From NCBI RefSeq assembly GCF_005938655.1, contig NZ_VCQT01000038.1, positions 124,001 to 188,000 on the forward strand: a DNA stretch of 64,000 nt. The letters are read 5' to 3'. The translations under genes and the position numbers were made by a program. Position 1 is the first letter of the stretch, and each line of letters starts with the position of its first letter. The stretch is from Alloalcanivorax gelatiniphagus (lineage in GTDB: Bacteria > Pseudomonadota > Gammaproteobacteria > Pseudomonadales > Alcanivoracaceae). This document shows positions 28,240 through 40,062 of the stretch, one piece after another. The notes under the pieces are model-generated. The model ran no database searches and had not been told where the DNA came from. It saw only the letters and a program-made list of their open reading frames with translations.

Positions 28240-28836
28240 TTATCTGGCGCGGCAGGAGCTGTTCTCAATCACAGCTGAAAACAACGAAAACATATCGGGA
28301 TCAAGCTTAGTGCCGGCTTCCTCGCTCAGGATGCTCATGGTCTCGTCGTGTGACCTGGCGCTATGGTAAGGCCTACCGGTGGTCATCGCATCATAGGCAT
28401 CGACGACCAGGAGAATTCGGCAAGCCCTTGGAATCTGCGTACCCGCCAGCCCGTCAGGGTATCCGCTCCCATCAAACGACTCATGGTGATGCCTGACGAT
28501 GGATGCCACCTCGGCCGCGTTCGGCAGCAATACAGCCTTGACGATGCGCTCCCCGATGGTCGAATGAGTTTTCATCTCCTCCCATTCTTCCGGTGTAAGC
28601 CCCCCTGGCTTCAACAGCACCCTGTCACGTACCCCAATCTTGCCCACATCATGCAATTGGCTGGCAATACGCAGGGCATCCAATGAAGAGGCGCTCAGTT
28701 TGGCTGCCTCGCCCATTGCCAGCGCCAACCTGTGGACCCGGTCGCAATGACCTCTGGTATAGGTATCGCGTGCGCACAAAGCGGTGATAAGCGCGGGACA
28801 GGGATTTTGCCAATCCGGCATGTTGGTGGAAGACAT
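28240..28836 (-). CDS. HD-GYP domain phosphohydrolase, single-domain
   Basis: A 198-residue protein, starting MSSTNMPDWQNP after a G-rich ribosome site. The metal-binding HD is at 62-63 (LHDVGKIG), with HHHESFDGSGYPDGLAG at 116-132, the HD-GYP signature of cyclic-di-GMP phosphodiesterases. Unlike most members it has no receiver, PAS or GAF sensor domain. It may therefore act as a free phosphodiesterase or depend on a partner. The final helices are short. Confidence 0.85.
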   Translation of the reverse strand: MSSTNMPDWQNPCPALITALCARDTYTRGHCDRVHRLALAMGEAAKLSASSLDALRIASQLHDVGKIGVRDRVLLKPGGLTPEEWEEMKTHSTIGERIVKAVLLPNAAEVASIVRHHHESFDGSGYPDGLAGTQIPRACRILLVVDAYDAMTTGRPYHSARSHDETMSILSEEAGTKLDPDMFSLFSAVIENSSCRAR

Positions 28837-29108
28837 CGCCCCCCCCTTCTGGTGACGCCCAACATGTAATGAAACGCTGGCTCCAGTACCCAATGGGTGG
28901 CCAGCCCGTGATCACATTGCTGTTTGCGATATAGGCAAATAAAAGCATAAATTCAAGCAGGCCACAAACCCCACGACTTCGCCGCTCCCGCTTCCTGGTA
29001 AGCACATTGGCGATGGGCGGCGTCCGAACTTAGTGCTCCGATTCGTATTGCCATAGATGGCCGCCGTATCGCACCATCTTGCAGTCTTCAAGGAGGGAAC
29101 TCGATCCC

Positions 29109-29651
29109 TTATTTTCGATATCCCACCCACTCTTTAAGCAAAATGGCGTACTGCCTGGTATCAACGAAGACAGGGCGCCCATCACTGTCGTTCTCGAATG
29201 AAACGAACTCTTTAAAGGTCCCTTCGTGTCGCATTCCTAATTTCTCACAAAGACGCTGTGACGCGACGTTATCGTCTTCCACGTAGGCAAAGAGGCGGCG
29301 GGTAGACTTCGCCGCGAACAAATACTGGAACAAGGTTTGCGCGGCCTCGGTGGCCAGCCCTGCGCCGCCAAACCGGGCATTGAAGTTCCACCCGACGGAG
29401 AACGTATCCGGCTCATCCCCGGCATGCGCAAACAGGTCACCGATCAGCTGGCCGGTATCCTTCAGACACACTGCGACATAGTCATCGCTGCTGCTACGCT
29501 TCCTGACATCCTTAAGCGCGGCGGCCATGTCCTCAAGTCTTTGTGAAAAGAAGCAGCTCACCCGAGGCTCATGCAGGTACTCGAACAGGCCTGCGGCGTC
29601 TTCCGCCGCGAAGTTTCTAAGCAACAGCCGATCAGTCTCAATCGCTTTCAT
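29109..29651 (-). CDS. GNAT acetyltransferase, RimJ/RimL type
   Basis: A 180-residue acetyltransferase opening IETDRLLLRNFAAEDAAGLF, with the acetyl-CoA loop ARFGGAGLATEAAQTLF and NVASQRLCEKLGMRHEG. These are standard RimJ-type features. It is separate from the other two GNATs in this accessory stretch and is not closely similar to either by eye. The 272 bases upstream of the HD-GYP gene and the 265 bases after this gene's start hold no gene that I can see. Confidence 0.9.
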   Translation of the reverse strand: MKAIETDRLLLRNFAAEDAAGLFEYLHEPRVSCFFSQRLEDMAAALKDVRKRSSSDDYVAVCLKDTGQLIGDLFAHAGDEPDTFSVGWNFNARFGGAGLATEAAQTLFQYLFAAKSTRRLFAYVEDDNVASQRLCEKLGMRHEGTFKEFVSFENDSDGRPVFVDTRQYAILLKEWVGYRK

Positions 29652-29756
29652 AAACTATCCACAAGTGCTGGCACCGAAACCGCCGAGTGTACCCCCGTTT
29701 GAGGCAGGGGCCTCTATCCGGGACGTGGATCCGTGTGCGCACCTTCCGGGGCTTCT

Positions 29757-29780
29757 GTAGGAGCGGCTTCAGCCGCGATC
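29757..29780. repeat. REP element
   Basis: GTAGGAGCGGCTTCAG followed by CCGCGATC is a single copy of the window's REP palindrome. It lies in the otherwise empty gap 29652-29916. Confidence 0.85.
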
Positions 29781-29916
29781 AACCCCGACGTCATCTTCAT
29801 CGCCACTGAACCAGAAACCACCCAGTCGCTCCGACCCAGAGGGCCCGGAAGGGCTCGCCCCCTGAGCCACTCCCCGGCTGACGCGTAGTTTCCCGCCAAG
29901 GTGCGATGAACCTTTT

Positions 29917-30414: not shown

Positions 30415-30500
30415 GGATTTCTCATAAAGCCCGCATTTACGGCTGGTTTGGTTCGCACCGGAAAACCGGCCCAACAACACGCGCTTATTTGGCAGAGTGC

Positions 30501-30872
30501 TCACTCCGTAATCTCCCAATGCTCCGCAAACCGAGCTTTTGCCACTTGATACATGCCCTGCCACTCTTTGCATCCCTCATGGCAGTGAACCGCAATAGAG
30601 ATCTTCCCCATTTCCGGCGCGCCCAACAGAACCAGTTTCAGCCCATCCACCCTTTCCGCAACGGCAATGGTTGTCGCTGTGCCACTTGGGAACTTGCGAG
30701 AGCCGTCTTCGGACGTCAAATTATTTTCGATAGCCAATTCATTCAACACCTCACGCGCCTTAATCAAATTCTCTTTTGACGCAGGAAAGGAGAATGTTAC
30801 TTGAGGGCTGGATGACTCAGCTGAGCAGCCGAATATGACTGCCAGCGCTAATACCAGGAATATATTTCGCAT
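30501..30872 (-). CDS. Putative lipoprotein, 123 aa
   Basis: MRNIFLVLALAVIFGCSAE is a short signal peptide with lipobox IFGC. The mature part of about 107 residues has one HCHEGC motif that could bind metal. Function unknown. It shares orientation with the neighbouring lipoprotein gene. A small hairpin (CGCCTG-TTTT-CAGGCG, 30891-30906) lies just upstream of its start. Confidence 0.7.
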   Translation of the reverse strand: MRNIFLVLALAVIFGCSAESSSPQVTFSFPASKENLIKAREVLNELAIENNLTSEDGSRKFPSGTATTIAVAERVDGLKLVLLGAPEMGKISIAVHCHEGCKEWQGMYQVAKARFAEHWEITE

Positions 30873-30910: not shown

Positions 30911-31498
30911 TCAGTCGCCTGCAACACTTTTTTCGCCCCGGCCTTCAGCAAGGTCCACCCCGCCAAATTCGGCAACGATACTTGGCGACCACAATCGCCA
31001 AGCGATCCATCCGAACAAGGTCGACATGCCAAGCGCGAATAAGGCTGCCACCACCCTCATTAGCGTCATCATAAATTCGAAATTAGATTGAAAATCCGGC
31101 GCAGCGTCCGGTGCAATGGGCATTTGCGACATGACTATTTGCTGAAGAACCAGCCCTCCAAGATTCCAAAACACTCCGAGAAGCATGAGCGCGACGAACG
31201 CGATGCGAGCCCAATTTTTCCTTTTAAGGAGGCCGATGGAAGACGCAAGAGTGCCCAGGCATACAACCAGAAATGCTGCGAATATGAGCTCAATGTGCCC
31301 AAGAATGAACATTGCAGCGGCTGGCATTTGCTCCACGGCTTGACCTGACATGTGTTGCCTCATCTCATCCATTGGCATTGCGAAGTGCAACATCAAGTTC
31401 TGAAGAAGCGAAACCAATGAGGCGAAACCACTCAGCACAATAAAGATCCACGCAACCACGGTTACAAAGTTGGAGCGGGGAGTGCTTGCGATAGACAT
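30911..31498 (-). CDS. Hypothetical four-helix membrane protein
   Basis: A 195-residue protein with four predicted membrane helices (FVTVVAWIFIVLSGFASLVS, FILGHIELIFAAFLVVCL, IAFVALMLLGVFWNLGGLV, VVAALFALGMSTLFGWIAW). A Met-rich loop lies between helices one and two. No family recognised. Its start is 19 bases from the leftmost attC-like site, so it could be the last cassette of the array, although I see no attC after its stop. Confidence 0.65.
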   Translation of the reverse strand: MSIASTPRSNFVTVVAWIFIVLSGFASLVSLLQNLMLHFAMPMDEMRQHMSGQAVEQMPAAAMFILGHIELIFAAFLVVCLGTLASSIGLLKRKNWARIAFVALMLLGVFWNLGGLVLQQIVMSQMPIAPDAAPDFQSNFEFMMTLMRVVAALFALGMSTLFGWIAWRLWSPSIVAEFGGVDLAEGRGEKSVAGD

Positions 31499-31516: not shown

Positions 31517-31588
31517 GGCTAACGCCGATGATAAGCGGCGCCCGGCTAGGGAGTCCGGTGGAAGCCGCAGGCCGGAACGAACTTAATT
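31517..31588 (-). other. attC-like recombination site (degenerate), left end of cassette array
   Basis: The plus strand runs from GGCTAAC to CTTAATT, with an internal GC-rich imperfect inverted repeat (GCGGC and GCCGC arms, CCGG repeats). Its position, directly after the stop of the ABM cassette at 31595, matches the other attC sites. The right core is degenerate. Confidence 0.5.
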
Positions 31589-31594
31589 GACTGG

Positions 31595-31912
31595 TCAAAT
31601 GCCATACTCACGCTCTACCCGCGCAACACGAACTCGAAAGCTTGAGTACCATTTTTTATGGCCAAGTCTCTGGGCTTCTTTATGCTCTGCGTTCTTTTTC
31701 CAATTAGTAATGGACTCCAGGCTCTCCCAGTAAGAAACGGTGATACCTAAACCCTCGCGCACGGACTCCATACCCAAGAAGCCCGGTTGACTTTCAGCCA
31801 ACTCGACCATGCGGTCTGCCATTGCCCCGTAGCCATTGTCTCCCTCGGTGCGATGGCTACTAAAAATCACCGCGTAATACGGCGGATCAGGAGTTTTTGC
31901 TATCTCTGACAT
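31595..31912 (-). CDS. ABM-family monooxygenase-like protein (gene cassette)
   Basis: A 105-residue protein with ABM features: PYYAVIFSSHRTEGDNGYG, then GFLGMESVREGLGITVSYWES and the NWKKNAEHKEAQRLG helix. Such proteins are small cofactor-independent monooxygenases or related heme-binding folds. It is flanked by attC sites on both sides and is therefore an integron cassette gene. Confidence 0.85.
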   Translation of the reverse strand: MSEIAKTPDPPYYAVIFSSHRTEGDNGYGAMADRMVELAESQPGFLGMESVREGLGITVSYWESLESITNWKKNAEHKEAQRLGHKKWYSSFRVRVARVEREYGI

Positions 31913-31926
31913 AGTCCCCTCTAGAC

Positions 31927-32010
31927 ATTTAACGCAAAGCTCTGGGGCGGCTGGAGCGAAGCGTAAACCGTCCCAGCCACGATAGTGGTGACAACAGCCC
32001 CTTGTTATGT
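31927..32010 (-). other. attC site
   Basis: Core ATTTAAC at 31927-31933 (GTTAAAT on the gene strand, a perfect GTTRRRY) and GTTATGT at 32004-32010 bracket an imperfect palindrome with CTGGGGCGGCTGG and CCAGCCAC arms. The stop codon of the kinase-like cassette gene lies inside the right core. Confidence 0.8.
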
Positions 32011-32511
32011 TTCATTGCTAGCACTAAGTAATTTACTAAGCTCATGCTTAGATTGTTCTGGTGTTTTTCCTGCCGTATCCAAAAAAATATCAGCCGAATA
32101 CCACAATTGATATTCCCTTGAAATTACGCTTCCCCAGTCAGGAGGTACAAGATTTGGAATATCCGATTTTCGGCTTTCAACTCTGCTTCGATGTTCTGAT
32201 TTATTTGAGCAGATAATTTCTATTTCCGTATAGGGCGCCTCAGCTTTTTTAGCGATGCTTACCCATGCTTGCCGAGACTCCGCAACTGGATTAGTAGAGT
32301 CAGCGACTACTGAAAGACCGTTTCGCAAATTGTCCAATGCTATAGAAAACGCAATTTTATAGCCTTCATCGTAAAGGTTTTTAAAGCCTGCATTACGTAA
32401 TTCTTGTTCAATGGTGTCAATACGAATGTAAACCGCGCCTATAGACGACGCCAAGAATTTGGAAAGTTCGCTCTTGCCTGTTGCCGGAAGGCCGCCGAAT
32501 ATATACAGCAT
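32005..32511 (-). CDS. P-loop kinase-like ATPase (gene cassette)
   Basis: A 168-residue P-loop protein from the ATG at 32511: MLYIFGGLPATGKSELSKFL carries a Walker A motif (GLPATGKS). VYIRIDTIEQELRNAG and VVADSTNP follow, as in AAA_33/zeta-toxin-like small-molecule kinases. The substrate is unknown. The gene is AT-richer than the core genome and lies between two attC sites. Its TAA stop is part of the attC core. Confidence 0.8.
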   Translation of the reverse strand: MLYIFGGLPATGKSELSKFLASSIGAVYIRIDTIEQELRNAGFKNLYDEGYKIAFSIALDNLRNGLSVVADSTNPVAESRQAWVSIAKKAEAPYTEIEIICSNKSEHRSRVESRKSDIPNLVPPDWGSVISREYQLWYSADIFLDTAGKTPEQSKHELSKLLSASNET

Positions 32512-32535
32512 CGAAATTTCCACATTTCACCTGAA

Positions 32536-32594
32536 ACATAACGCGAAAACGAAGCGGCGCGTCTCACGGGTCTGCCTTCCGTGACTTGTTATAC
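32536..32594 (-). other. attC site
   Basis: Cores ACATAAC (32536-32542) and GTTATAC (32588-32594) enclose a short imperfect inverted repeat containing CACGG and CCGTG. At 59 bases it is near the lower size limit for attC. The stop codon of the LysE cassette lies in the right core. Confidence 0.75.
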
Positions 32595-33206
32595 CCGATC
32601 ACTAAAAGCCAACTTAAGTCCGAGCGCAGCAAAACTTGTAGCGAAAATTCTCTGCATGACAGTGCCGGCTCTTTTTGACCTAACAATATAATCGCTAAAA
32701 ATGCCTGAAAGAAGACCGTACACAATAAACACAGCAAAAGTCATAAGCATAAAAAAAAGCCCAAGAACCATCATACTAACTAGAACGCTATCGGTTGTGC
32801 TAGGGATAAACTGTGGTAGAAAAGCCAGAAAGAATATAGAAAGTTTAGGGTTTAAGATATTGATCAAAAACCCTTTTACAATAGTGTCAGTGTATCGCGT
32901 AGCTGACTTATTATCTTTCAAAGAGAGTGGACCCGAAGATCGCCACATTTGCCATGCAAGATAAAGTAAGTATGCAGCACCAGCATATTTTACAACCTGA
33001 AACGCGAGCGCACTGGTATGAAATATAGCGGCAAGACCCAAAGCGCTTGCTAAAAATGCAGGTACGATACCGAGGGTGCAGCCGAATGCAGCAAATATAC
33101 TGGCACGTTTACCTACGAAGAGCCCTGTTGCGACGGTATACAAAACCCCAGTTCCTGGAATTAGAACCACCACTAGGGAGGTGAGTAAAAACTCTATAGA
33201 AATCAT
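32589..33206 (-). CDS. LysE-family exporter (gene cassette)
   Basis: A 205-residue transporter with six hydrophobic segments. The start MISIEFLLTSLVVVLIPGTG and the segment GLFVGKRASIFAAFGCTLG are the LysE/RhtB signature (PGP- or PGT-type motif with following loop). It probably exports an amino acid or similar metabolite; the substrate is unknown. AT-rich codons mark it as foreign to its surroundings. It is bounded by attC sites. Confidence 0.9.
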   Translation of the reverse strand: MISIEFLLTSLVVVLIPGTGVLYTVATGLFVGKRASIFAAFGCTLGIVPAFLASALGLAAIFHTSALAFQVVKYAGAAYLLYLAWQMWRSSGPLSLKDNKSATRYTDTIVKGFLINILNPKLSIFFLAFLPQFIPSTTDSVLVSMMVLGLFFMLMTFAVFIVYGLLSGIFSDYIVRSKRAGTVMQRIFATSFAALGLKLAFSDRV

Positions 33207-33231
33207 CTCAAGTTTCCCTTTCCGTTAAAGG

Positions 33232-33303
33232 GTATAACGCCAGTGGTACTGGGTGGCAACGGAGCTCAGCGTAGTTGGCATTCCATTGACCACATTGTTA
33301 CAC
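33232..33303 (-). other. attC site
   Basis: Cores GTATAAC (33232-33238) and GTTACAC (33297-33303) enclose CAGTGG and CCATTG partly paired arms. It follows the tautomerase cassette stop, which lies in the right core. Confidence 0.75.
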
Positions 33304-33684
33304 ATTGATCGAGTACTTGAGGTCGCGCGCCTCATCTCCAGTCATGCCACGAAAGCCCCAACAGTGGGGTGGCTGCTCCTTGATCGTGACCTCAACATCC
33401 ACGGGCGATATGCCAACCTCGGACTCAATCTTGCTGAATAGCTCCTTGATCAAAGCTTTTTGGGTCTCGGAAGCTCTACCCTCCATCATATTGATCTCGA
33501 TGGCAGTGTATGCGGGCGTCCTACCACCGGGGTAATAAAAATCCTCAGATTCCATAGGGATAAAGCGATGAGCCCGCTTGTCTTCAGGCATACCGAGTAC
33601 GGACTGCATACATCCGTGAATGACCTCAGAGAGCTGAGCCTTGACCGGATTAAGGTGTTCTTTGATTCCATAGATAACTACCAC
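33298..33684 (-). CDS. Tautomerase-family protein (gene cassette)
   Basis: A 128-residue protein from a GTG start at 33684, which has an excellent AGGAGG site upstream. It has the VVIYGIKEHLNPVKAQLSEV opening and the EINMMEGRASETQKALIKEL helix typical of 4-oxalocrotonate-tautomerase-like trimers. The catalytic amino-terminal proline of that superfamily is not at position 2 here, so activity is uncertain. It is flanked by attC sites. Confidence 0.75.
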   Translation of the reverse strand: MVVIYGIKEHLNPVKAQLSEVIHGCMQSVLGMPEDKRAHRFIPMESEDFYYPGGRTPAYTAIEINMMEGRASETQKALIKELFSKIESEVGISPVDVEVTIKEQPPHCWGFRGMTGDEARDLKYSINV

Positions 33685-33699
33685 GGTTCCTCCTGCAAT

Positions 33700-33782
33700 G
33701 TGTAACGCCCGCAGCACGCGCGGCTTTGTAGTGAAGGCAAGCCGCAGCGGAAAAGCCGCCGCTGTGACTGCGATTGTTAGGC
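33700..33782 (-). other. attC site
   Basis: Cores GTGTAAC (33700-33706) and GTTAGGC (33776-33782) enclose long GC-rich arms (GCAGCACGCGCGGCTTTG and a partner beginning CGGCGGC on the other strand). It is very similar to the site at 34534, showing that these cassettes share an attC subtype. Confidence 0.9.
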
Positions 33783-33798
33783 TTCTGCTGAATAGACG

Positions 33799-34515
33799 TC
33801 AAAACCGTTCATCATATATAGCAGGCAGCACAAGTTCACGGACGTAAGATGCGCTAGACATGTTAATGAGGGTATTTACAACGTTGACTACGTCGTGAAC
33901 GGGTACAAGTTGTCCGTTACCTCGGAGAGCGGCTTCATCCAATGGCACAGAAAGAGCATCGTCTGTGTTGAGGTAGCCAAGCTGCAAACAAGTAACCGCT
34001 AAACCGTCCTTTCGGAAACCCTCTCTCAATGCGTCACCAATACCTGTCAGGGCAAACTTTGACGCGCCAAACGTAACTTCCGGACGTCCACTCTGGCGAA
34101 GCCCGGATGTTGAACCAGTAAGAATCAATCGAGGATTAGTGGAATTGAGAAGTTTGGGAATAAGCCTTTTTAGCAGCAGTATGGTTCCAGTGATGTTGAT
34201 ATTCACCATCCCAACAATGCTCTCATCAGAATCATCAAGAAACTTGTACTCATCCGTAAAAGCCGTCTCTTCCCAGACTCCCAGATTGTATATCAGCACA
34301 TCCAGCTCCGGGGGAGTTTGCCGCTCAATCTCTAAGGCTGCCTCCAGAGGGGTTCCTAGGTCCGCTTCGATCCAATCAAGACTAACGAAATCAGGCAGCT
34401 TAAGCTCTTTCGGACGCAGGCGTGAAACACCAACAACATTATCACCAGCCGTGCATAACCCTTCTACAAAAGCTCGACCCAGGCCTTTACTCGCCCCAAC
34501 GACCATTAACTTCAT
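33799..34515 (-). CDS. Short-chain dehydrogenase/reductase (gene cassette)
   Basis: A 238-residue SDR from the ATG at 34515, which has AAGGAGGG seven bases upstream. The cofactor loop GASKGLGRAF lies at residues 7-16, the DVLIYNLG motif replaces the usual NNAG, and the catalytic Tyr-x-x-x-Lys position appears as FGASKFAL, with Phe where Tyr is expected. That substitution may impair classical dehydrogenase activity. Substrate unknown. It is flanked by two closely related attC sites. Confidence 0.85.
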   Translation of the reverse strand: MKLMVVGASKGLGRAFVEGLCTAGDNVVGVSRLRPKELKLPDFVSLDWIEADLGTPLEAALEIERQTPPELDVLIYNLGVWEETAFTDEYKFLDDSDESIVGMVNINITGTILLLKRLIPKLLNSTNPRLILTGSTSGLRQSGRPEVTFGASKFALTGIGDALREGFRKDGLAVTCLQLGYLNTDDALSVPLDEAALRGNGQLVPVHDVVNVVNTLINMSSASYVRELVLPAIYDERF

Positions 34516-34533
34516 GAACCAACCCTCCTTTTT

Positions 34534-34617
34534 GCCTAACGCCCGCAGCACGCGCGGCTTTGTAATGGAGGCGCAGCCGCAATGGAGAAGCTGTCGCTGT
34601 GCCTGCGATTGTTAGCC
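34534..34617 (-). other. attC site
   Basis: Cores GCCTAAC (34534-34540) and GTTAGCC (34611-34617) enclose GC-rich imperfect arms, closely matching the site at 33700. The stop codon of the following cassette gene lies in the right core. Confidence 0.9.
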
Positions 34618-35052
34618 ATGTAGAGCTCCCTCAAATATTGCCTGGATCTCAGAAGTCGCATTTTTCAGTGTGTCCAAACGCGTCGTTTGATTGACCGCTG
34701 GAGAATAGGCACTCCAAATCTCGCTCTTTAGCTCTGAAAACCTTTCCCGGCTCCTACCTGTCAGATACAACCTAACGATATGCTCCTGGCTATTAATCTC
34801 ATAAAAACATTCAGAAATAGCCATGTCTTTGTCTTCTTGATCAAGGCTCGTATCGTAGAGAATATCTACAGCCGCTTTGCGAAACTGGTTCAAATGGCTT
34901 ATGAACCCAGCAAACGCGATGCTTCGCTGTTGCCGAAGCCACTTTTCATATTCTGTTCGGCGAGTCAGAAAGGCGCCTAGAAAACCGCCCGCCACGGAAA
35001 AAAAACCTGCCACGATGGCAACATTCAACCCAATGTCTTCCCCACAGTACAT
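34612..35052 (-). CDS. Hypothetical membrane-anchored helical protein (gene cassette)
   Basis: A 146-residue protein with one N-terminal membrane helix (VAIVAGFFSVAGGFLGAFL). A basic RRTEYEKWLRQQR segment and an alpha-helical cytoplasmic domain rich in charged residues follow. No family recognised. It lies between two attC sites, the right-hand one interrupted by an IS element. Confidence 0.65.
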   Translation of the reverse strand: MYCGEDIGLNVAIVAGFFSVAGGFLGAFLTRRTEYEKWLRQQRSIAFAGFISHLNQFRKAAVDILYDTSLDQEDKDMAISECFYEINSQEHIVRLYLTGRSRERFSELKSEIWSAYSPAVNQTTRLDTLKNATSEIQAIFEGALHG

Positions 35053-35175
35053 TATCTATACTCCACTTAGGTCGATTAGCAGTGCTGGCTAACGCTGCGG
35101 ACGCGCGCTCGTGATCTGCTACCACTTTCGTGGGCACTTTCAGGCACACGCACCGAAGTATTCCTCCGGCCTTTT

Positions 35176-35968
35176 TTACCCGATCCCTGAGTGGAGCCGA
35201 TCGCGATTGTAGAAGTCGATGTACTCCACGATTCTTGTCACTGCTTCGATTTCATTAGCGAATCGGCGCTGATGCACCAGTTCTGTTTTCAGTGTATGGA
35301 AGAAGGATTCCACGGTCGCATTGTCCAGTAGATTCCCCTTCCAGCTCATGCTCCGGCGCATGCCGGCCTGCTCGACCAGACCCCGATACTCATAAGCGGC
35401 ATACTCGATGCCCTGGTCGGAGTGGAGCACACAGCCCGGCTGCGGGCATTGTCGTGACAGCGCCATGCGAAGCGCACTCTTGGTCAGCTCCGCATTGTCG
35501 AGCGACTGAACGCCCCCCCACGCGACGGCTGAACAGATCCGCGACCACGGCATGTTAAAGCCAGCCACTCGGCGCCCTGATGTAGGTAAAATCCCCGGCC
35601 CAGGGCTGCCCTTCGCCCGAGGGCGGCGCGTCCTCGGCCAGTACGTTGCTTGCCGAAGTATAGAAAGCATGTCCACCCGGGTTCCACACATAAAGCCCCT
35701 TGGTGGAGGCATGAACGCCGGCTTCTTTCATCAGCCTGGACACCCGCCGGATGCTGCAGGACAGGCCACTCTGGCGGAGTTGCTGATGCACCCGCCGGGC
35801 GCCATAGGCCCGGCGGAAGCCCTGGTTAAGCTCGACAATCGCGCCCATCAGCAACTTGTCATGGCGTCGGTGATCGCTCTCGGCACGACTTAGCCGCTGC
35901 GGGAGACGCCGAGCAGACTGCATGGCGGTGCACGTCACGGTGGCCACGGTTCTTCTCAACCAGCTCAT
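35176..35968 (-). pseudogene. IS3-family transposase OrfB, disrupted
   Basis: The N-terminal part (FRRAYGARRVHQQLRQSG, DFTYIRAPSGWL) ends at an in-frame TAA near 35560. The same frame continues after the stop as HAVVADLFSRRV, and then a frameshift at a G-run near 35515 moves the rest (VQSLDNAELTKSAL to DRLHSGIG, with the HSDQG and E motifs of the DDE core) into another frame. The catalytic domain cannot be made as one protein. Confidence 0.8.
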
Positions 35969-35974
35969 AGAGCC

Positions 35975-36343
35975 TTACTTTTTCCACTGGAAGAACCGCT
36001 CGGCCTTTTTTAGCAAATCAATCTCGTCATCGCTCTGGGCCAGTTGCCGCTCCAGCTTTTTGATCCGTCTCTCCGCAGCGGCCAATTTCTCTTCGGCCAC
36101 CTTGGTCGGATCTGCTCGGGTCGGCCGCCGCTCAGGGGAAGGCTTTTCCGTTTTCATGCTTTTATTCTCCCTGAGCTCGCCCCGCCTGGCCTCCATCTGC
36201 CAGCGATAGAGCATCACCGGATGGATACCCAATGACTCTGCTACATCCTTGGACTTAACGTCAGGGTGATTAGCCAACGTACCGGCTTGAATCTTGAAAG
36301 CCAGGATATAACGATCATATTTTCTCTTCTTGGTCTGTCCCAC
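35975..36343 (-). CDS. IS3-family transposase OrfA
   Basis: A 122-residue protein with the helix-turn-helix DVAESLGIHPVMLYRWQME and a C-terminal leucine-zipper-like coiled coil (EEKLAAAERRIKKLERQL). This is the usual OrfA that binds the IS ends and joins OrfB by frameshifting. It appears intact, but its OrfB partner is broken. Confidence 0.85.
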   Translation of the reverse strand: MGQTKKRKYDRYILAFKIQAGTLANHPDVKSKDVAESLGIHPVMLYRWQMEARRGELRENKSMKTEKPSPERRPTRADPTKVAEEKLAAAERRIKKLERQLAQSDDEIDLLKKAERFFQWKK

Positions 36344-36454
36344 TCTGCACCTCTCTCACGAACAGAAAACTCTGTCCACAAAAGTGGTTACAGATAACGG
36401 CGTATCCGTTGTGACGAAGGAGCAACGGATGCGACGTCGCTTTGCCCGCGATTG

Positions 36455-37261
36455 TTAGGCGCCACTTGGCTCGCAAAGACCTTGCCCGTGAGACATCTCG
36501 GCCAGTTTCAAAAGCGAGTCTTGGTAAGGGGCTCCGCCCACCTCCATAACCGATCTTATTTCGCTTATACAGTCCCACACGACCCTCCGCCATTTGAATG
36601 AGCTGTAGTTCATGGCGTCTTGTAGGATCATGGACGCGGTCAGTAGCGTATTTGATATTACAGTTATATTAGAGGGAAACCTCGGTGCTGGCTCCAAACC
36701 CGTTATGGTAAAAAAGTCTTGCTGGCCGTCGTTTGCCATAGGATGAACATGCGTGGAGGCGTAATCATAGCCGTATTTATACAGAAACTGCATTCCCATG
36801 TCTTTTGCTACTGCTGCAGCTTTTGGTCGCTTCCAAACCGGCTTGCTTTTCTCGAGAGCCCTTATTCGCTCCTTTTGTTTCTCGGATAGGTTGTATACCC
36901 AGCCCACGGCTTGGCCTTTGAATAGCTCGTCACTTTTCACCCGGTTCTGGGCTTTGTACTGCTCATAAAACGACCAGCCATCAAAAACTTCAAACTCATT
37001 TTTTTCTCCGAGGCTATGCAGATGAAACATCCTATCTACAAGGACTCGATGTATAGCCCACGCACTTTGATAATCCTGATTGTCCCATAGCAAAAAAACG
37101 CTTTTGAGGGTTCTAGCGGATCGGGCAACGAAGTTTCTAATGATAATGTTTTTCGTATCGCATTCATGTCGCGCGAAAGCGAAAAGAAGCATTCCGCTGA
37201 CAATGTAAAGAGCGTCCGCTGCAGCGCGGTATACTTCAACCGGTTGATGTTCTTCCGACAT
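36455..37261 (-). CDS. Hypothetical protein, DUF5677-like (gene cassette)
   Basis: A 268-residue, mostly alpha-helical soluble protein from the ATG at 37261. Conserved-looking segments are RSARTLKSVFLLWDNQDYQSAWAI and the ASTHVHPMANDGQQDF region near residue 175. The pattern reminds me of DUF5677, whose function is unknown. The TAA stop lies inside the attC core at 36454. A second IS element ends 31 bases before its start and may have replaced its promoter. Confidence 0.6.
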   Translation of the reverse strand: MSEEHQPVEVYRAAADALYIVSGMLLFAFARHECDTKNIIIRNFVARSARTLKSVFLLWDNQDYQSAWAIHRVLVDRMFHLHSLGEKNEFEVFDGWSFYEQYKAQNRVKSDELFKGQAVGWVYNLSEKQKERIRALEKSKPVWKRPKAAAVAKDMGMQFLYKYGYDYASTHVHPMANDGQQDFFTITGLEPAPRFPSNITVISNTLLTASMILQDAMNYSSFKWRRVVWDCISEIRSVMEVGGAPYQDSLLKLAEMSHGQGLCEPSGA

Positions 37262-37292
37262 GCCGATCTCGTTGCTGGTCCTACCCATAAAA

Positions 37293-38121
37293 AGTAGACA
37301 CTGTTATGCGCATCTGCGCTCAAATTCTGCCGGACCGATATTGCCGAGGGCAGAGTGTCTCCGTTTGCAGTTATAAAAGATTTCAATGTATTCGAAGGTA
37401 CCGGATTGAACCGCTTCAATGGAACCAAATTGCTCGGCATAGATCAGCTCGACCTTGAGCCGACTGTAGAATAATTCCATTACCGCATTATCCCACCAGT
37501 TACCATGCCGGCTCATGCTGGGCAAACAGTCGCGCGAGCGAATCATGTCCAGGTACTTCACAGAGCGGAACTGGACGCCGCGATCCGAGTGGATGATCAA
37601 CCCGGGCTGAACATCCCGGGTTGCGAAGGCCATGCTGAGCGCGTCCATTGCGAGCTTCTCCGTCATCGAAGTGTCGAGCTTCCACCCTACGATGGTCCTG
37701 GAATAGAGATCCATTACCGTGGCCAGGTACAGCCAGCGCCCATTGACCCTGATATAGGTAATATCCATTACCCACTCCTGGCTCGGGCCCTCTGCACGGA
37801 AGCGGCGACGCAGGAGGTTGTCTTCGACGTTGATCATCGTCGGACTGGCCGGACGATAATGAAAGCCTTTGCCATTGCGAGCTCGAATGCCGCGTAATCG
37901 CATGATATTGGCCACAAAGTTCTTCGAGTAAGGCAGCCCCGCCGCCTTCAGTTCCAACGCCAACCTGGGCGCGCCGTAGCGCGCCTTGAACTCGCCGAAC
38001 AAATCGATCACCTTGTTCTCGACCCTCTCCCTGCGAAATTCCTGGGTATATACATGGCGTTGTTTCTTGACCATGACACACCTCCGTGTAGGGGCGTCCC
38101 TAACTATAAAAGGTGTCTACT
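37293..38121 (-). mobile_element. Internally deleted IS3-family element
   Basis: AGTAGACAC at the left end (37293) is matched by GTGTCTACT at the right end (38121). The element is only about 829 bases long, shorter than an IS3-family element with two ORFs. It has inserted between the attC core at 38141 and the start of the DUF5677-like cassette gene. Confidence 0.75.
37304..38074 (-). CDS. IS3-family transposase, fused OrfA start and OrfB after internal deletion
   Basis: A 256-residue protein whose first residues (KKQRHVYTQEFRRE) look like OrfA. It passes directly into mid-OrfB (LFGEFKARYGAPRLALELK), skipping the OrfA helix-turn-helix and the OrfB start. The DDE integrase core is present: D in DITYIRVNGRW, D in IHSDRGVQF and E in NAVMELFYSRLK. 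The catalytic part is complete but the DNA-binding part is lost, so autonomous transposition is unlikely. Confidence 0.8.
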   Translation of the reverse strand: MVKKQRHVYTQEFRRERVENKVIDLFGEFKARYGAPRLALELKAAGLPYSKNFVANIMRLRGIRARNGKGFHYRPASPTMINVEDNLLRRRFRAEGPSQEWVMDITYIRVNGRWLYLATVMDLYSRTIVGWKLDTSMTEKLAMDALSMAFATRDVQPGLIIHSDRGVQFRSVKYLDMIRSRDCLPSMSRHGNWWDNAVMELFYSRLKVELIYAEQFGSIEAVQSGTFEYIEIFYNCKRRHSALGNIGPAEFERRCA

Positions 38122-38140
38122 CCTTGTGGGTAACTCGGTC

Positions 38141-38250
38141 ATCTAACGCCTAAGCTCAGTTGCCGCCGGAGCAGCCAAAGGCTGCTGAGGGAACCCAAAG
38201 CGTGCCAGCGCTTTGTGCTGTCAACTGCAGCGACTTGCTGGGTGCTTAGT
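38141..38250 (-). other. attC site
   Basis: The core ATCTAAC (38141-38147) is a perfect RYYYAAC. The right core is degenerate (GCTTAGT, 38244-38250). Between them lie several inverted repeats, including GCAGCC-AAA-GGCTGC and AAAGCG/CGCTTT. At 110 bases it is the longest attC here. Confidence 0.8.
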
Positions 38251-38752
38251 CATGCAAATTAAATATTTTTCGGAACTCAACTTCCGCTGAAGAACGCTTG
38301 CCTACGCCGCTTCGTATGACGCCTTTAATGCTCCATTTCGGCTTCTGTGTGCCTTTGACATTCTGGAGCTCAGTATTCGCGGCGACTCCGGCTTGAATGA
38401 GAAAATCTTCGATCTCAGTAATTTGCGTCTTATTTGTCACGCCTTGCTGGTTAGGATGAACCACGAAATACATCAAGGGCGTCCCTTTAGCGTAGTTGCT
38501 GAACCCGTTCTGATATTTGTGGCGATTGCTCGGATTGAACGTCTCTTGCTTGAAGCTCACGCTAGCTTGCCCGATATAAACGGGCGTAAGGCCGCCACCA
38601 CTTCGAATTACAAAAACATAACAACCGCGTTCAGCTGCCAAGTGCGAAGCTTTGCTTCCGTCGTTCCAGAAATTATCGAAAACAAGCTGCCGCCCCCCTT
38701 TTCGGTTTTCCCACTCGATTTCGTGCGGGCCGTCAACTGTAAAGCTAGTCAT
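38246..38752 (-). CDS. GIY-YIG-like nuclease-domain protein (gene cassette)
   Basis: A 168-residue protein. The segment GCYVFVIRSGGGLTPVYIGQA near residues 43-63 matches the two-part GIY-YIG motif (CYVF for GIY, VYIG for YIG), with a later glutamate in ITEIEDFLI that could be the metal ligand. GIY-YIG domains are single-strand or structure-specific nucleases. It is the first cassette next to the integrase remnant, the position with the strongest expected expression in an intact integron. The assignment rests on motif reading only. Confidence 0.6.
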   Translation of the reverse strand: MTSFTVDGPHEIEWENRKGGRQLVFDNFWNDGSKASHLAAERGCYVFVIRSGGGLTPVYIGQASVSFKQETFNPSNRHKYQNGFSNYAKGTPLMYFVVHPNQQGVTNKTQITEIEDFLIQAGVAANTELQNVKGTQKPKWSIKGVIRSGVGKRSSAEVEFRKIFNLHD

Positions 38753-38763
38753 GCATATTCCTC

Positions 38764-38820
38764 ACCCAACCGGCATTAGGACGCCGTCTCGAATATCCAA
38801 TGAACGCGCAGGCGTTATAT
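38764..38820 (-). other. Integron recombination core next to the integrase remnant (attI or a further attC)
   Basis: ACCCAAC (38764-38770) is GTTGGGT on the cassette strand, a perfect core site 12 bases before the first cassette gene. GTTATAT (38814-38820) could be a second core. The arms are poorly palindromic, which fits attI better than attC, but a decayed attC is not excluded. Confidence 0.5.
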
Positions 38821-38934
38821 CACGTTATAGTTTTTGGCTTCGCCGAATAAAACCAGAAAACTCAACAGGTTACAAACCTGCCGCGTTGTCTGTCCCTGTT
38901 CGCTTGATTTCTTCAGTTCCGAATTACCATGACT

Positions 38935-38950
38935 CCGTTTATATAAACAG
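38935..38950. promoter_or_regulatory. LexA-like SOS box upstream of the integrase remnant
   Basis: CCGTTTATATAAACAG differs by one base from the perfect palindrome CTGTTTATATAAACAG and fits the CTG-N10-CAG LexA form. It ends 16 bases before the ATG of the intI-like fragment. LexA control of integron integrases is well established, so the box supports the identity of the fragment. Confidence 0.6.
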
Positions 38951-38966: not shown

Positions 38967-39086
38967 ATGCATACGGATAGTGGGAGGCGCCCAGGGCTCC
39001 GTGATCAGTTTCGCGATGCCATTCGAGTGGGCCATTACAGCCCGCAGGGGCGAATCGCCGGCTGCTGGTTTGAAATGGAGAGGTGA
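38967..39086 (+). pseudogene. intI: Truncated integron integrase (intI) 5' remnant, 39 codons
   Basis: Starting with ATG after AAGAGG (six-base spacing), the frame reads GRRPGLRDQFRDAIRVGHYSP in its early part. The run LRDQFRDAIRVGHYS corresponds to the conserved N-terminal helix of IntI proteins (L-DQ-R-RIR--HYS). The similarity fades and the frame stops after EMER. No tyrosine-recombinase catalytic domain follows; REP and tandem-repeat DNA and then pdxH occupy the space. Its direction, divergent from the cassettes, is as expected for intI. The length makes the call tentative. Confidence 0.55.
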
Positions 39087-39103
39087 TCGTTGGTTTAGAG
39101 GCT

Positions 39104-39127
39104 GATCGCGGCTGAAGCCGCTCCTAC
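39104..39127. repeat. REP element
   Basis: GATCGCGGCTGAAGCC followed by GCTCCTAC is one REP unit, 17 bases after the stop of the intI remnant and directly before a 10-base tandem array. Confidence 0.85.
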
Positions 39128-39130
39128 AGG

Positions 39131-39233: not shown

Positions 39234-39863
39234 TCAGGGGGCGAGGCGTTCTCGGGTCCAGGTGGTGCCTTGTTTGAGGTAGCGGAAGCGGTCGTGGAGG
39301 CGGCTGGGGCGGCCGTGCCAGAACTGGATTTCTTCCGGGGTGATGCGGTAGCCGCCCCAGGTTTCGGGCATGGGGATGGGGTCGCCTTCCGGGTGTTGTT
39401 GGGCGAGGTTGGCCATGTCCGCTTCCAGTTGTTCGCGGGTGGTGGGGCGGCTTTGTGGGGAGATAGCGGCGCTGAGCTGGCTGTCGCGGGGGCGGCTGGC
39501 GAAGTATTCCCGGGCTTGTTGGGCGGGGAGTTTTTCGGCGCGGCCGTTGACGATGAGCTGGCGGTCGAAGGGGCCCCAGAACATGACGAAGGAGACGTTG
39601 GGGTTGGCGGCGATGTCGTCGCCTTTACGGCTGTCGTGGTGGGTAAAGAAGACGAAGCCGCCGTCCTCGATGCCTTTGAGCAGGACCACCCGGCTGGAGG
39701 GGCGGCCGTGGCCGGAGACGGTGGCCAGGGTCATGGCGTTGGCCAGGGGCAGGCCGGCGTCGATGGCTTCATCGACCCAACGGCGGGCCTGCTCGACCGG
39801 GTCCGCCAGCAGGTCGGCTTCGGTGAGGCCGGGGGCGTGGTATTCCTGGCGTACGTCTTTCAT
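39234..39863 (-). CDS. pdxH: Pyridoxamine 5'-phosphate oxidase
   Basis: A 209-residue FMN enzyme that oxidises pyridoxamine or pyridoxine phosphate to pyridoxal phosphate. The RVVLLKGIEDGGFVFFTHHDSRKG block binds FMN, SRPRDSQLSAAISPQS is the family signature, and the C-terminus FWHGRPSRLHDRFRY with RERLAP is complete. The start at 39863 (MKDVRQEYHAPGL) matches family length. It is a core metabolic gene and marks the right border of the integron region. Confidence 0.95.
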   Translation of the reverse strand: MKDVRQEYHAPGLTEADLLADPVEQARRWVDEAIDAGLPLANAMTLATVSGHGRPSSRVVLLKGIEDGGFVFFTHHDSRKGDDIAANPNVSFVMFWGPFDRQLIVNGRAEKLPAQQAREYFASRPRDSQLSAAISPQSRPTTREQLEADMANLAQQHPEGDPIPMPETWGGYRITPEEIQFWHGRPSRLHDRFRYLKQGTTWTRERLAP

Positions 39864-39964: not shown

Positions 39965-39988
39965 GATCGCGGCTGAAGCCGCTCCTAC
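39965..39988. repeat. REP element
   Basis: GATCGCGGCTGAAGCC followed by GCTCCTAC, in the 199-base space between the divergent pdxH and chaC-like genes. Confidence 0.85.
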
Positions 39989-40062
39989 GGGGGGGGTTGG
40001 TGGCGCGCTGAGTGGATGATCCGGTGGCGGCGGGTTGGGGCGGGATTCGTTATCCTGGGCGG

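What the first reader, a model, noticed from the sequence alone, without database searches (positions are those of the whole stretch)
31517..38820. Chromosomal integron cassette array without integrase (CALIN), carrying uncharacterised cassette proteins
Eight minus-strand genes of unrelated families are each followed by an attC-type site. The sites at 33700 and 34534 share nearly the same arms, as expected from one integron lineage. Several cassette products have no clear function (34612, 36455, 38246).
Basis: partly seen in the sequence, partly recalled or inferred. Interest (0 to 1): 0.7.

Follow-up and report, generated by a model that had tools for sequence, protein, structure and literature searches.

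The report
Integrase-less integron, one of many platforms
A row of captured genes in a bacterium of the genus Alloalcanivorax sits behind the docking site of an integron whose capturing enzyme has eroded to a stub, and the same chromosome carries more such docking sites, so gene capture here seems to be spread over many places and to run without a resident enzyme.

Summary
The cassette array is real. An attC model trained only on sites beside integrase genes of relatives finds seven attC sites in 64 kb, all on the minus strand at 30.4-38.3 kb; an eighth is weak (31517), a ninth is split by an IS3-family insertion. The assembly encodes no IntI, only XerC and XerD. "CALIN" is true but incomplete: between pdxH and the first cassette lie a 25-codon intI stub (38967-39041, +), a LexA-like box and an attI (38768-38877, -). 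In Alloalcanivorax profundimaris an intact intI occupies this spot, so this is the relic of a chromosomal integron anchored at pdxH. The unexpected part: the attI has nine matches in this genome (two in the window), beside guaA, ubiD, an mscS-like gene and others, and at least one in 30 of 46 family genomes, but none outside the family in a sample of the order. 74 of 101 copies examined have an attC downstream. At the guaA attI, two genomes without intact IntI differ by one 1,233-bp cassette placed exactly at the crossover. Best reading: many attI platforms per chromosome, most without a resident integrase, still filled or emptied by an IntI in trans. The parts are known; I found no report of this layout.

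The parts
39234..39863 (-). pdxH, anchor gene; intI sits directly beside it in A. profundimaris (G023)
   Evidence: TIGR00558 over cut-off; pdxH in 34 of 46 family genomes at E <= 1e-40; in G023 the pdxH and IntI matches are about 25 bp apart
38967..39041 (+). intI stub: first 25 codons, divergent from the cassettes
   Evidence: tblastn 68% identity over 25 aa to the intact IntI of G035, E 1.8e-5; translation
38935..38950 (-). LexA-like box CTGTTTATATAAACGG (near CTGT-N8-ACAG)
   Evidence: G026 and G022 have the full palindrome at this place; that such a box marks SOS-controlled intI promoters is recalled
38768..38877 (-). attI, crossover after its GTT
   Evidence: model R2 built without this genome: 79.7 bits, E 8e-24; sequence diverges right after it in relatives
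38246..38752 (-). cassette 1, 168-aa orphan protein
   Evidence: no family at the usual thresholds; AlphaFold2 model poor, pLDDT 48
38141..38243 (-). attC of cassette 1
   Evidence: 25.9 bits
37276..38141 (-). IS3-family remnant abutting the attC, one ORF
   Evidence: a homologous copy in A. marinus has about 380 bp more between the two matching pieces
36455..37252 (-). cassette 2, DUF5677 protein
   Evidence: PF18928, E 3e-22
36393..36460 (-). attC of cassette 2, first part (cut by the IS)
35116..36392 (-). IS3-family element (1,277 bp) inside that attC; ATC repeat at its ends
   Evidence: transposase domains; ends
35087..35115 (-). attC of cassette 2, second part
34612..35052 (-). cassette 3, 146-aa all-helical orphan protein
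   Evidence: no significant family; model pLDDT 82, all helices
34534..34617 (-). attC
   Evidence: 54.6 bits; folds as attC
33799..34515 (-). cassette 4, short-chain dehydrogenase
   Evidence: PF00106 E 1e-20
33700..33782 (-). attC
   Evidence: 62.2 bits; folds as attC
33298..33684 (-). cassette 5, tautomerase
   Evidence: PF14552 E 1e-21
33232..33303 (-). attC
   Evidence: 22.8 bits
32589..33206 (-). cassette 6, LysE-type exporter
   Evidence: PF01810 E 4e-31
32536..32594 (-). attC
   Evidence: 36.7 bits
32005..32508 (-). cassette 7, P-loop (AAA_33) protein
   Evidence: PF13671 E 6e-13
31927..32010 (-). attC
   Evidence: 26.8 bits
31595..31912 (-). cassette 8, ABM-domain protein
   Evidence: PF03992 E 4e-9
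31517..31600 (-). doubtful, decayed attC
   Evidence: 13.2 bits, E 0.09
30911..31498 (-). probable former cassette, 195-aa protein, no attC found behind it
   Evidence: inference
30501..30872 (-). probable former cassette, 123-aa protein of no significant family
   Evidence: inference
30422..30490 (-). degenerate attC
   Evidence: 26.9 bits; G021 has an 84% identical 62-bp stretch
28861..28969 (-). second attI copy, degenerate
   Evidence: 21.5 bits, E 1.2e-5 in the window, 8e-4 for the genome
28240..28836 (-). HD-domain gene directly behind the second attI; no attC found behind it
   Evidence: PF13487 E 2e-32

Best explanation
Shown: the window holds the relic of a chromosomal integron at pdxH in an Alloalcanivorax genome, with an intI reduced to about 25 recognisable codons, an attI and a cassette array. 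Shown: the same attI sequence recurs at several chromosomal loci in this genome and in most of the family genomes examined, usually with attC sites behind it. Inferred: these are attI platforms, some of which once had their own intI (stubs remain beside attIs of three other genomes) and lost it, while attI stayed. Inferred: they still gain or lose cassettes when an IntI is supplied in trans (a plasmid, a mobile integron, or a lineage with intact intI), by attI x attC recombination at G|TTRRRY. Retention of attI after loss of intI would make sense if it also carries the cassette promoter; that was not shown.
For: attC array. In this genome the integrase-family matches are four partial ones in two frames, which score over the cut-offs of XerD and XerC; one search finds only these two places. 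IntI in 1 of 13 genus genomes at E <= 1e-60. intI stub and attI beside pdxH; intact intI in G023, 144 codons left in G026 and 93 in G022. attI model R2, trained without this genome: 9 matches here, at least one in 30 of 46 family genomes. Order sample: 9 of 293 genomes match at E <= 1e-4, all nine of this family. Sites beside intact intI starts: G002 and G003 (found with the window's own attI as DNA query; both are also in R2's training set) and G035 (R2, not in training). Same-strand attC within about 3 kb downstream at E <= 0.01: 23 of 31 (recounted) and 51 of 70; opposite strand 1 of 31 and 0 of 70. Loci with the same upstream gene in different species align for up to 1.5 kb, the length compared, and stop within 16 bases of the crossover. 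guaA platform: G026 has a 1,233-bp segment (366-aa frame, attC at its end) exactly at the crossover, and the next 1,363 bp match this genome at 98.5%. Cassettes shared between intI-linked and orphan platforms: G002/G004, G003/G010. intI relics beside other attIs: G019, G034, G035 C59.
Against: No recombination, integrase binding or promoter activity was measured. The genome is a 50-contig draft, so an IntI in a gap cannot be excluded. 27 of 101 copies have no attC within reach at E <= 0.01. Not all platforms turn over: G028 and G029 share the first stretch behind pdxH (93.6%), and their attI core is degraded there. The weakly resolved pdxH tree nests intact-intI G023 among species with truncated intI, so the order of loss is unclear. 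Five window attCs fold poorly. In the order sample only 12 candidates per genome were scored (this genome gave 8 of its 9), so weak or diverged copies elsewhere could be missed.
Confidence: 0.78

Rival explanations
1. An ordinary dead chromosomal integron: intI decayed, the array is frozen, and the other attI copies are inert fossils.
For: intI is gone, several attCs are degenerate, two IS elements lie in the array, and some attIs are degraded.
Against: A one-cassette difference exactly at the guaA attI between two genomes without intact IntI, in sequence 98.5% identical; unrelated DNA behind attIs whose upstream DNA is 91-95% identical; attI copies with downstream attC in 3 genera.
Confidence: 0.2
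2. The repeated module is not attI but a promoter-terminator module or repeat that happens to precede cassettes.
For: Copies of the guaA type carry a terminator-like hairpin upstream (seen by eye); the module has conserved blocks; the simple scan puts a terminator-like match on the left end of the window's attI, though such matches are near chance number there (16 found, 11.7 expected).
Against: The same sequence sits directly upstream of intact intI in three genomes of two genera; homology ends at a GTT crossover; an exact one-cassette difference occurs there.
Confidence: 0.07
3. Cassettes were dropped at non-classical attG sites by a passing integrase, with no attI involved.
For: Dispersed attCs without intI are expected from attG insertion; one attC pair of this genome (C40 near 308.7 kb) has no R2 match before it.
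Against: In the window and at most other loci examined a 110-bp attI-like sequence precedes the first cassette; that attG sites are short and degenerate is recalled.
Confidence: 0.05
4. A variant of the best explanation: the multiplicity came from duplication of one attI region with its neighbours rather than from several full integrons.
For: Two copies on contig C4 share a TetR gene region, 837 bp at 91%; a copy beside a RhuM/Fic gene carries a stretch that by eye resembles the guaA 3' end.
Against: intI stubs occur beside attIs at other loci in G019, G034 and G035; the ubiD and mscS copies keep a LexA-like box, by eye. Both routes may have contributed.
Confidence: 0.35

Closest known systems
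Xanthomonas chromosomal integron at ilvD (PMC12444791; abstract, passages and section 11 read)
   Same: Ancient integron anchored beside a housekeeping gene, intI repeatedly truncated or lost, arrays left behind, further CALINs elsewhere
   Different: Here the anchor is pdxH, and further arrays carry their own attI copies at conserved loci; the Xanthomonas passages read describe the others as clusters of attC sites
CALIN (cluster of attC sites lacking integrase; definition as quoted in PMC12444791)
   Same: Two or more attCs, no nearby functional intI
   Different: attI and an intI stub are present at the head of the array
Sedentary chromosomal integron of Vibrio type (recalled; only search listings seen)
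   Same: attI, attC arrays, many uncharacterised cassettes
   Different: Small arrays at several attIs instead of one large array beside one active intI
Delta-attI-type cassettes of class 1 and 2 integrons (PMC12901181; passages read)
   Same: attI sequence found away from the intI-adjacent site
   Different: Those are mostly attI fragments that replace attC downstream of a gene in mobile integrons; here whole attIs precede cassettes at chromosomal loci

Membership tests
CALIN | at least two attC sites | tested here: met
   7 in the window
CALIN | no functional integrase nearby | tested here: met
   stub only; genome has XerC and XerD
complete chromosomal integron | intact intI | tested here: not met
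   25-codon stub
complete chromosomal integron | attI next to the first cassette | tested here: met
   79.7 bits
complete chromosomal integron | attC-bearing cassettes in one orientation | tested here: met
complete chromosomal integron | cassette promoter Pc | tested here: inconclusive
   no sigma-70-like match at attI in the simple scan; conserved blocks in the attI alignment
attI site (dispersed copies) | lies beside intI in at least some genomes | tested here: met
   G002, G003, G035
attI site (dispersed copies) | cassettes exchanged at G|TTRRRY | tested here: met
   by genome comparison only
attI site (dispersed copies) | recombined by cognate IntI | not testable with these tools
   needs an assay
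attG insertion site (window array) | no attI before the first cassette | tested here: not met

The most novel reading that the evidence does not exclude
A distributed integron: in Alcanivoracaceae several dedicated attI platforms per chromosome, at conserved loci such as pdxH, guaA and ubiD, accept cassettes in trans from a shared or intermittently supplied integrase, so gene capture continues in lineages with no resident intI.
Probability: 0.5. Interest if true: 0.78.

Novelty: new variant of a known kind. Interest (0 to 1): 0.62.

Why it matters
Integrons are usually described as one integrase beside one attI and one array, and integrase-less arrays as remnants. Many attI platforms on one chromosome, still exchanging cassettes without a resident integrase, would mean that surveys keyed on intI or on attC clusters miss part of gene capture. 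It would also make in-trans cassette uptake directly testable with a set of attIs that nature has already dispersed.

Tried and rejected
Rfam at gathering thresholds found nothing in the window. A home-made attC motif scan had too many opposite-strand hits to be used alone (110 in 252 kb), so it served only to pick training sites: 23 of the 66 listed, chosen by eye; one was trimmed by five leading bases. Taking the longest frame in G023 as IntI was wrong (a transposase-like frame) and was corrected. PADLOC gave nothing for nine of ten window proteins and only Cas3/Cas10-model matches, best E 5e-5, for the HD-domain protein at 28240. Two orphan cassette proteins had no plasmid match at E <= 1e-5, and 38246 had no PDB sequence match. 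My guess that 38246 is a GIY-YIG nuclease rests on a motif seen by eye; the structure model is too poor to say. No fold search was run.

Selections behind the attI counts: 103 rows were followed up (33 already fetched, 70 fetched later); the weaker rows, above E 8.1e-7, were dropped, among them the second attI of the window. Two of the 103 (intI-adjacent, G002 and G003) were left out of the attC tally, giving 101; the 70 still include the intI-adjacent copy of G035 and the copy of G004 whose intI is split. itself used E <= 0.1 and gives 25 of 31; the 23 of 31 at 0.01 is my recount of its rows. In one search only part of the rows was typed, the best for each locus; I checked by eye that the other rows lie on the same strand as their attI. 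Some fetched stretches end early at contig ends, which lowers the tally. From the 33, 21 made model R2; the 8 of this genome and 4 truncated or odd ones were dropped. One paper search mostly matched words such as 'attitudes' and is useless.
Full report
The observation. A covariance model of attC (R1) was built from 23 attC sites of arrays beside intI in the same bacterial family, none from the window; its structure covaries (103 cells changed on both sides against 34.8 in shuffles, none of 500 as high). Over the window it gives seven matches, all on the minus strand, at 30.4-38.3 kb. With filters off a weak eighth appears at 31517. The site behind the DUF5677 gene is interrupted by an IS3-family element of 1,277 bp with an ATC repeat. 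Folded alone, only the two strongest sites take the textbook shape by my reading, which would suit an ageing array.

What the cassettes encode. By Pfam: DUF5677, a short-chain dehydrogenase, a tautomerase, a LysE-type exporter, a P-loop protein and an ABM-domain protein. Two products (38246, 34612) have no family. The latter is modelled as all helices at pLDDT 82; the former gives no usable model.

The head of the array. The genome's matches to the integron-integrase family are four partial ones in two frames, below the cut-off; these frames pass the NCBIfam cut-offs for XerD and XerC. Among 13 genus genomes only G023 (A. profundimaris ST75FaO-1) has IntI at E <= 1e-60; it passes the integron-integrase cut-off (388 bits) and lies about 25 bp from pdxH. 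In the window, pdxH is followed by 25 codons of intI (68% identity, E 1.8e-5) in the expected divergent orientation, then a LexA-like box, then an attI. Relatives show other stages of loss: 144 codons in G026 and 93 in G022, about 28-30 in G021, none found in G020. G026 and G021 share a junction inside intI and, with this genome and G020, a REP-bearing flank beside pdxH. The pdxH tree, weakly resolved, nests intact G023 within this group, so intI alleles may also have moved by recombination.

attI. Past the conserved GTT the sequences of the relatives differ at once, as attI x attC recombination predicts. The Xanthomonas integron at ilvD has a similar history of intI loss beside a housekeeping gene (PMC12444791; abstract, passages and section 11 read).

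Many attIs. A DNA search with the attI region found several copies in many genomes. Of these, 33 with flanks were compared: nearly all end at the same CCTAAT-CCTGTT pattern and are followed by unrelated DNA. Loci that share an upstream gene in different species (guaA, ubiD, a TetR gene, a RhuM/Fic gene; families checked) align for up to 1.5 kb, the length compared, and stop within 16 bases of the crossover. A sequence model (R2) from 21 copies, none from this genome, finds 9 in this genome at E <= 0.001, including both in the window. It finds at least one in 30 of 46 family genomes, in three genera. In a sample of 293 genomes of the order 9 match at E <= 1e-4, all of this family; 12 family genomes are among the 29 rows shown, and the other 264 are reported as without a match (12 candidates scored per genome). 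Sites lie beside the start of intact intI in G002 and G003 (both are in R2's training set) and in G035 (not in training). Of the 30 genomes with R2 sites, 10 have an IntI match at E <= 1e-60 (in G004 it is split), so 20 do not.

Do they head cassettes? Same-strand attC within about 3 kb downstream at E <= 0.01: 23 of 31 copies (25 at 0.1) and 51 of 70, together 74 of 101; opposite strand 1 of 31 and 0 of 70.

Are they active? At the guaA locus this genome and G026 match at 94% for 1.5 kb upstream. In G026 a 1,233-bp segment with one 366-aa frame (no Pfam family) and an attC begins exactly at the crossover; the following 1,363 bp then match this genome from its own crossover on, at 98.5%. This looks like one cassette gained or lost at attI. 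G026 keeps only a truncated intI and this genome a stub. The shared cassette DNA is more alike than the upstream DNA, which suggests recent transfer. Cassettes are also shared between intI-linked and orphan platforms (G002/G004, G003/G010) and between two platforms of one genome (G032, 93%). Against this, G028 and G029 share the first stretch behind pdxH, with a degraded attI core.

Origin of the copies. intI relics beside attIs at loci other than pdxH (G019 at 0.58 Mb, G034, G035 C59) and LexA-like boxes at the ubiD and mscS copies (by eye) point to several former full integrons. The guaA-type copies have a terminator-like hairpin instead (by eye), and some copies look duplicated with neighbours. 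Both routes are possible.

Print. Searches for Alcanivorax with integron terms, for multiple, second, additional or orphan attI, for attG and secondary sites and for multiple integrons with in-trans action showed no report of dispersed attI families in the titles and abstract starts listed; one search was spoilt by unrelated words. The papers listed were not read except the two named above and in Closest known systems, and most subscription journals are not held, so this is weak evidence of novelty.

Verdict. The array is a real integrase-less integron relic, an ordinary kind by itself. The dispersed, apparently still used attI platforms are a new variant.

Noticed in passing
window 29755-29784 and 39100-39129: Inverted copies (97%) of a REP-like repeat flank the variable region; a third copy lies at 39965-39993.
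   Followed up: partly
window 37276-38141: An IS3-family remnant starts at the end of the first attC; the A. marinus copy matches from the same attC end onwards, so an attC-linked insertion preference is possible.
   Followed up: partly
L066 4620-4784: A 74-aa frame resembling an internal piece of IntI (46% over 54 aa, E 4e-8) lies about 4.7 kb downstream of the mscS attI of this genome, another possible integrase fragment.
   Followed up: partly
attI alignment A2, columns 70-78 with 98-106: A 9-bp inverted repeat inside attI pairs in 92.6% of cells, with four cells changed on both sides; its role is unknown.
   Followed up: partly
L068 6671-7783 (G000 contig C40 near 308.7 kb): Two attC sites in one orientation without a detectable attI of this family before them.
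   Followed up: no
L066 8571-9467: The cassette behind the mscS attI encodes a protein with a DUF4062 domain and tetratricopeptide repeats.
   Followed up: partly
window 29109-29651: GNAT acetyltransferase gene with no match at E <= 1e-20 in the other 45 family genomes, between the decayed cassettes and the second attI.
   Followed up: partly
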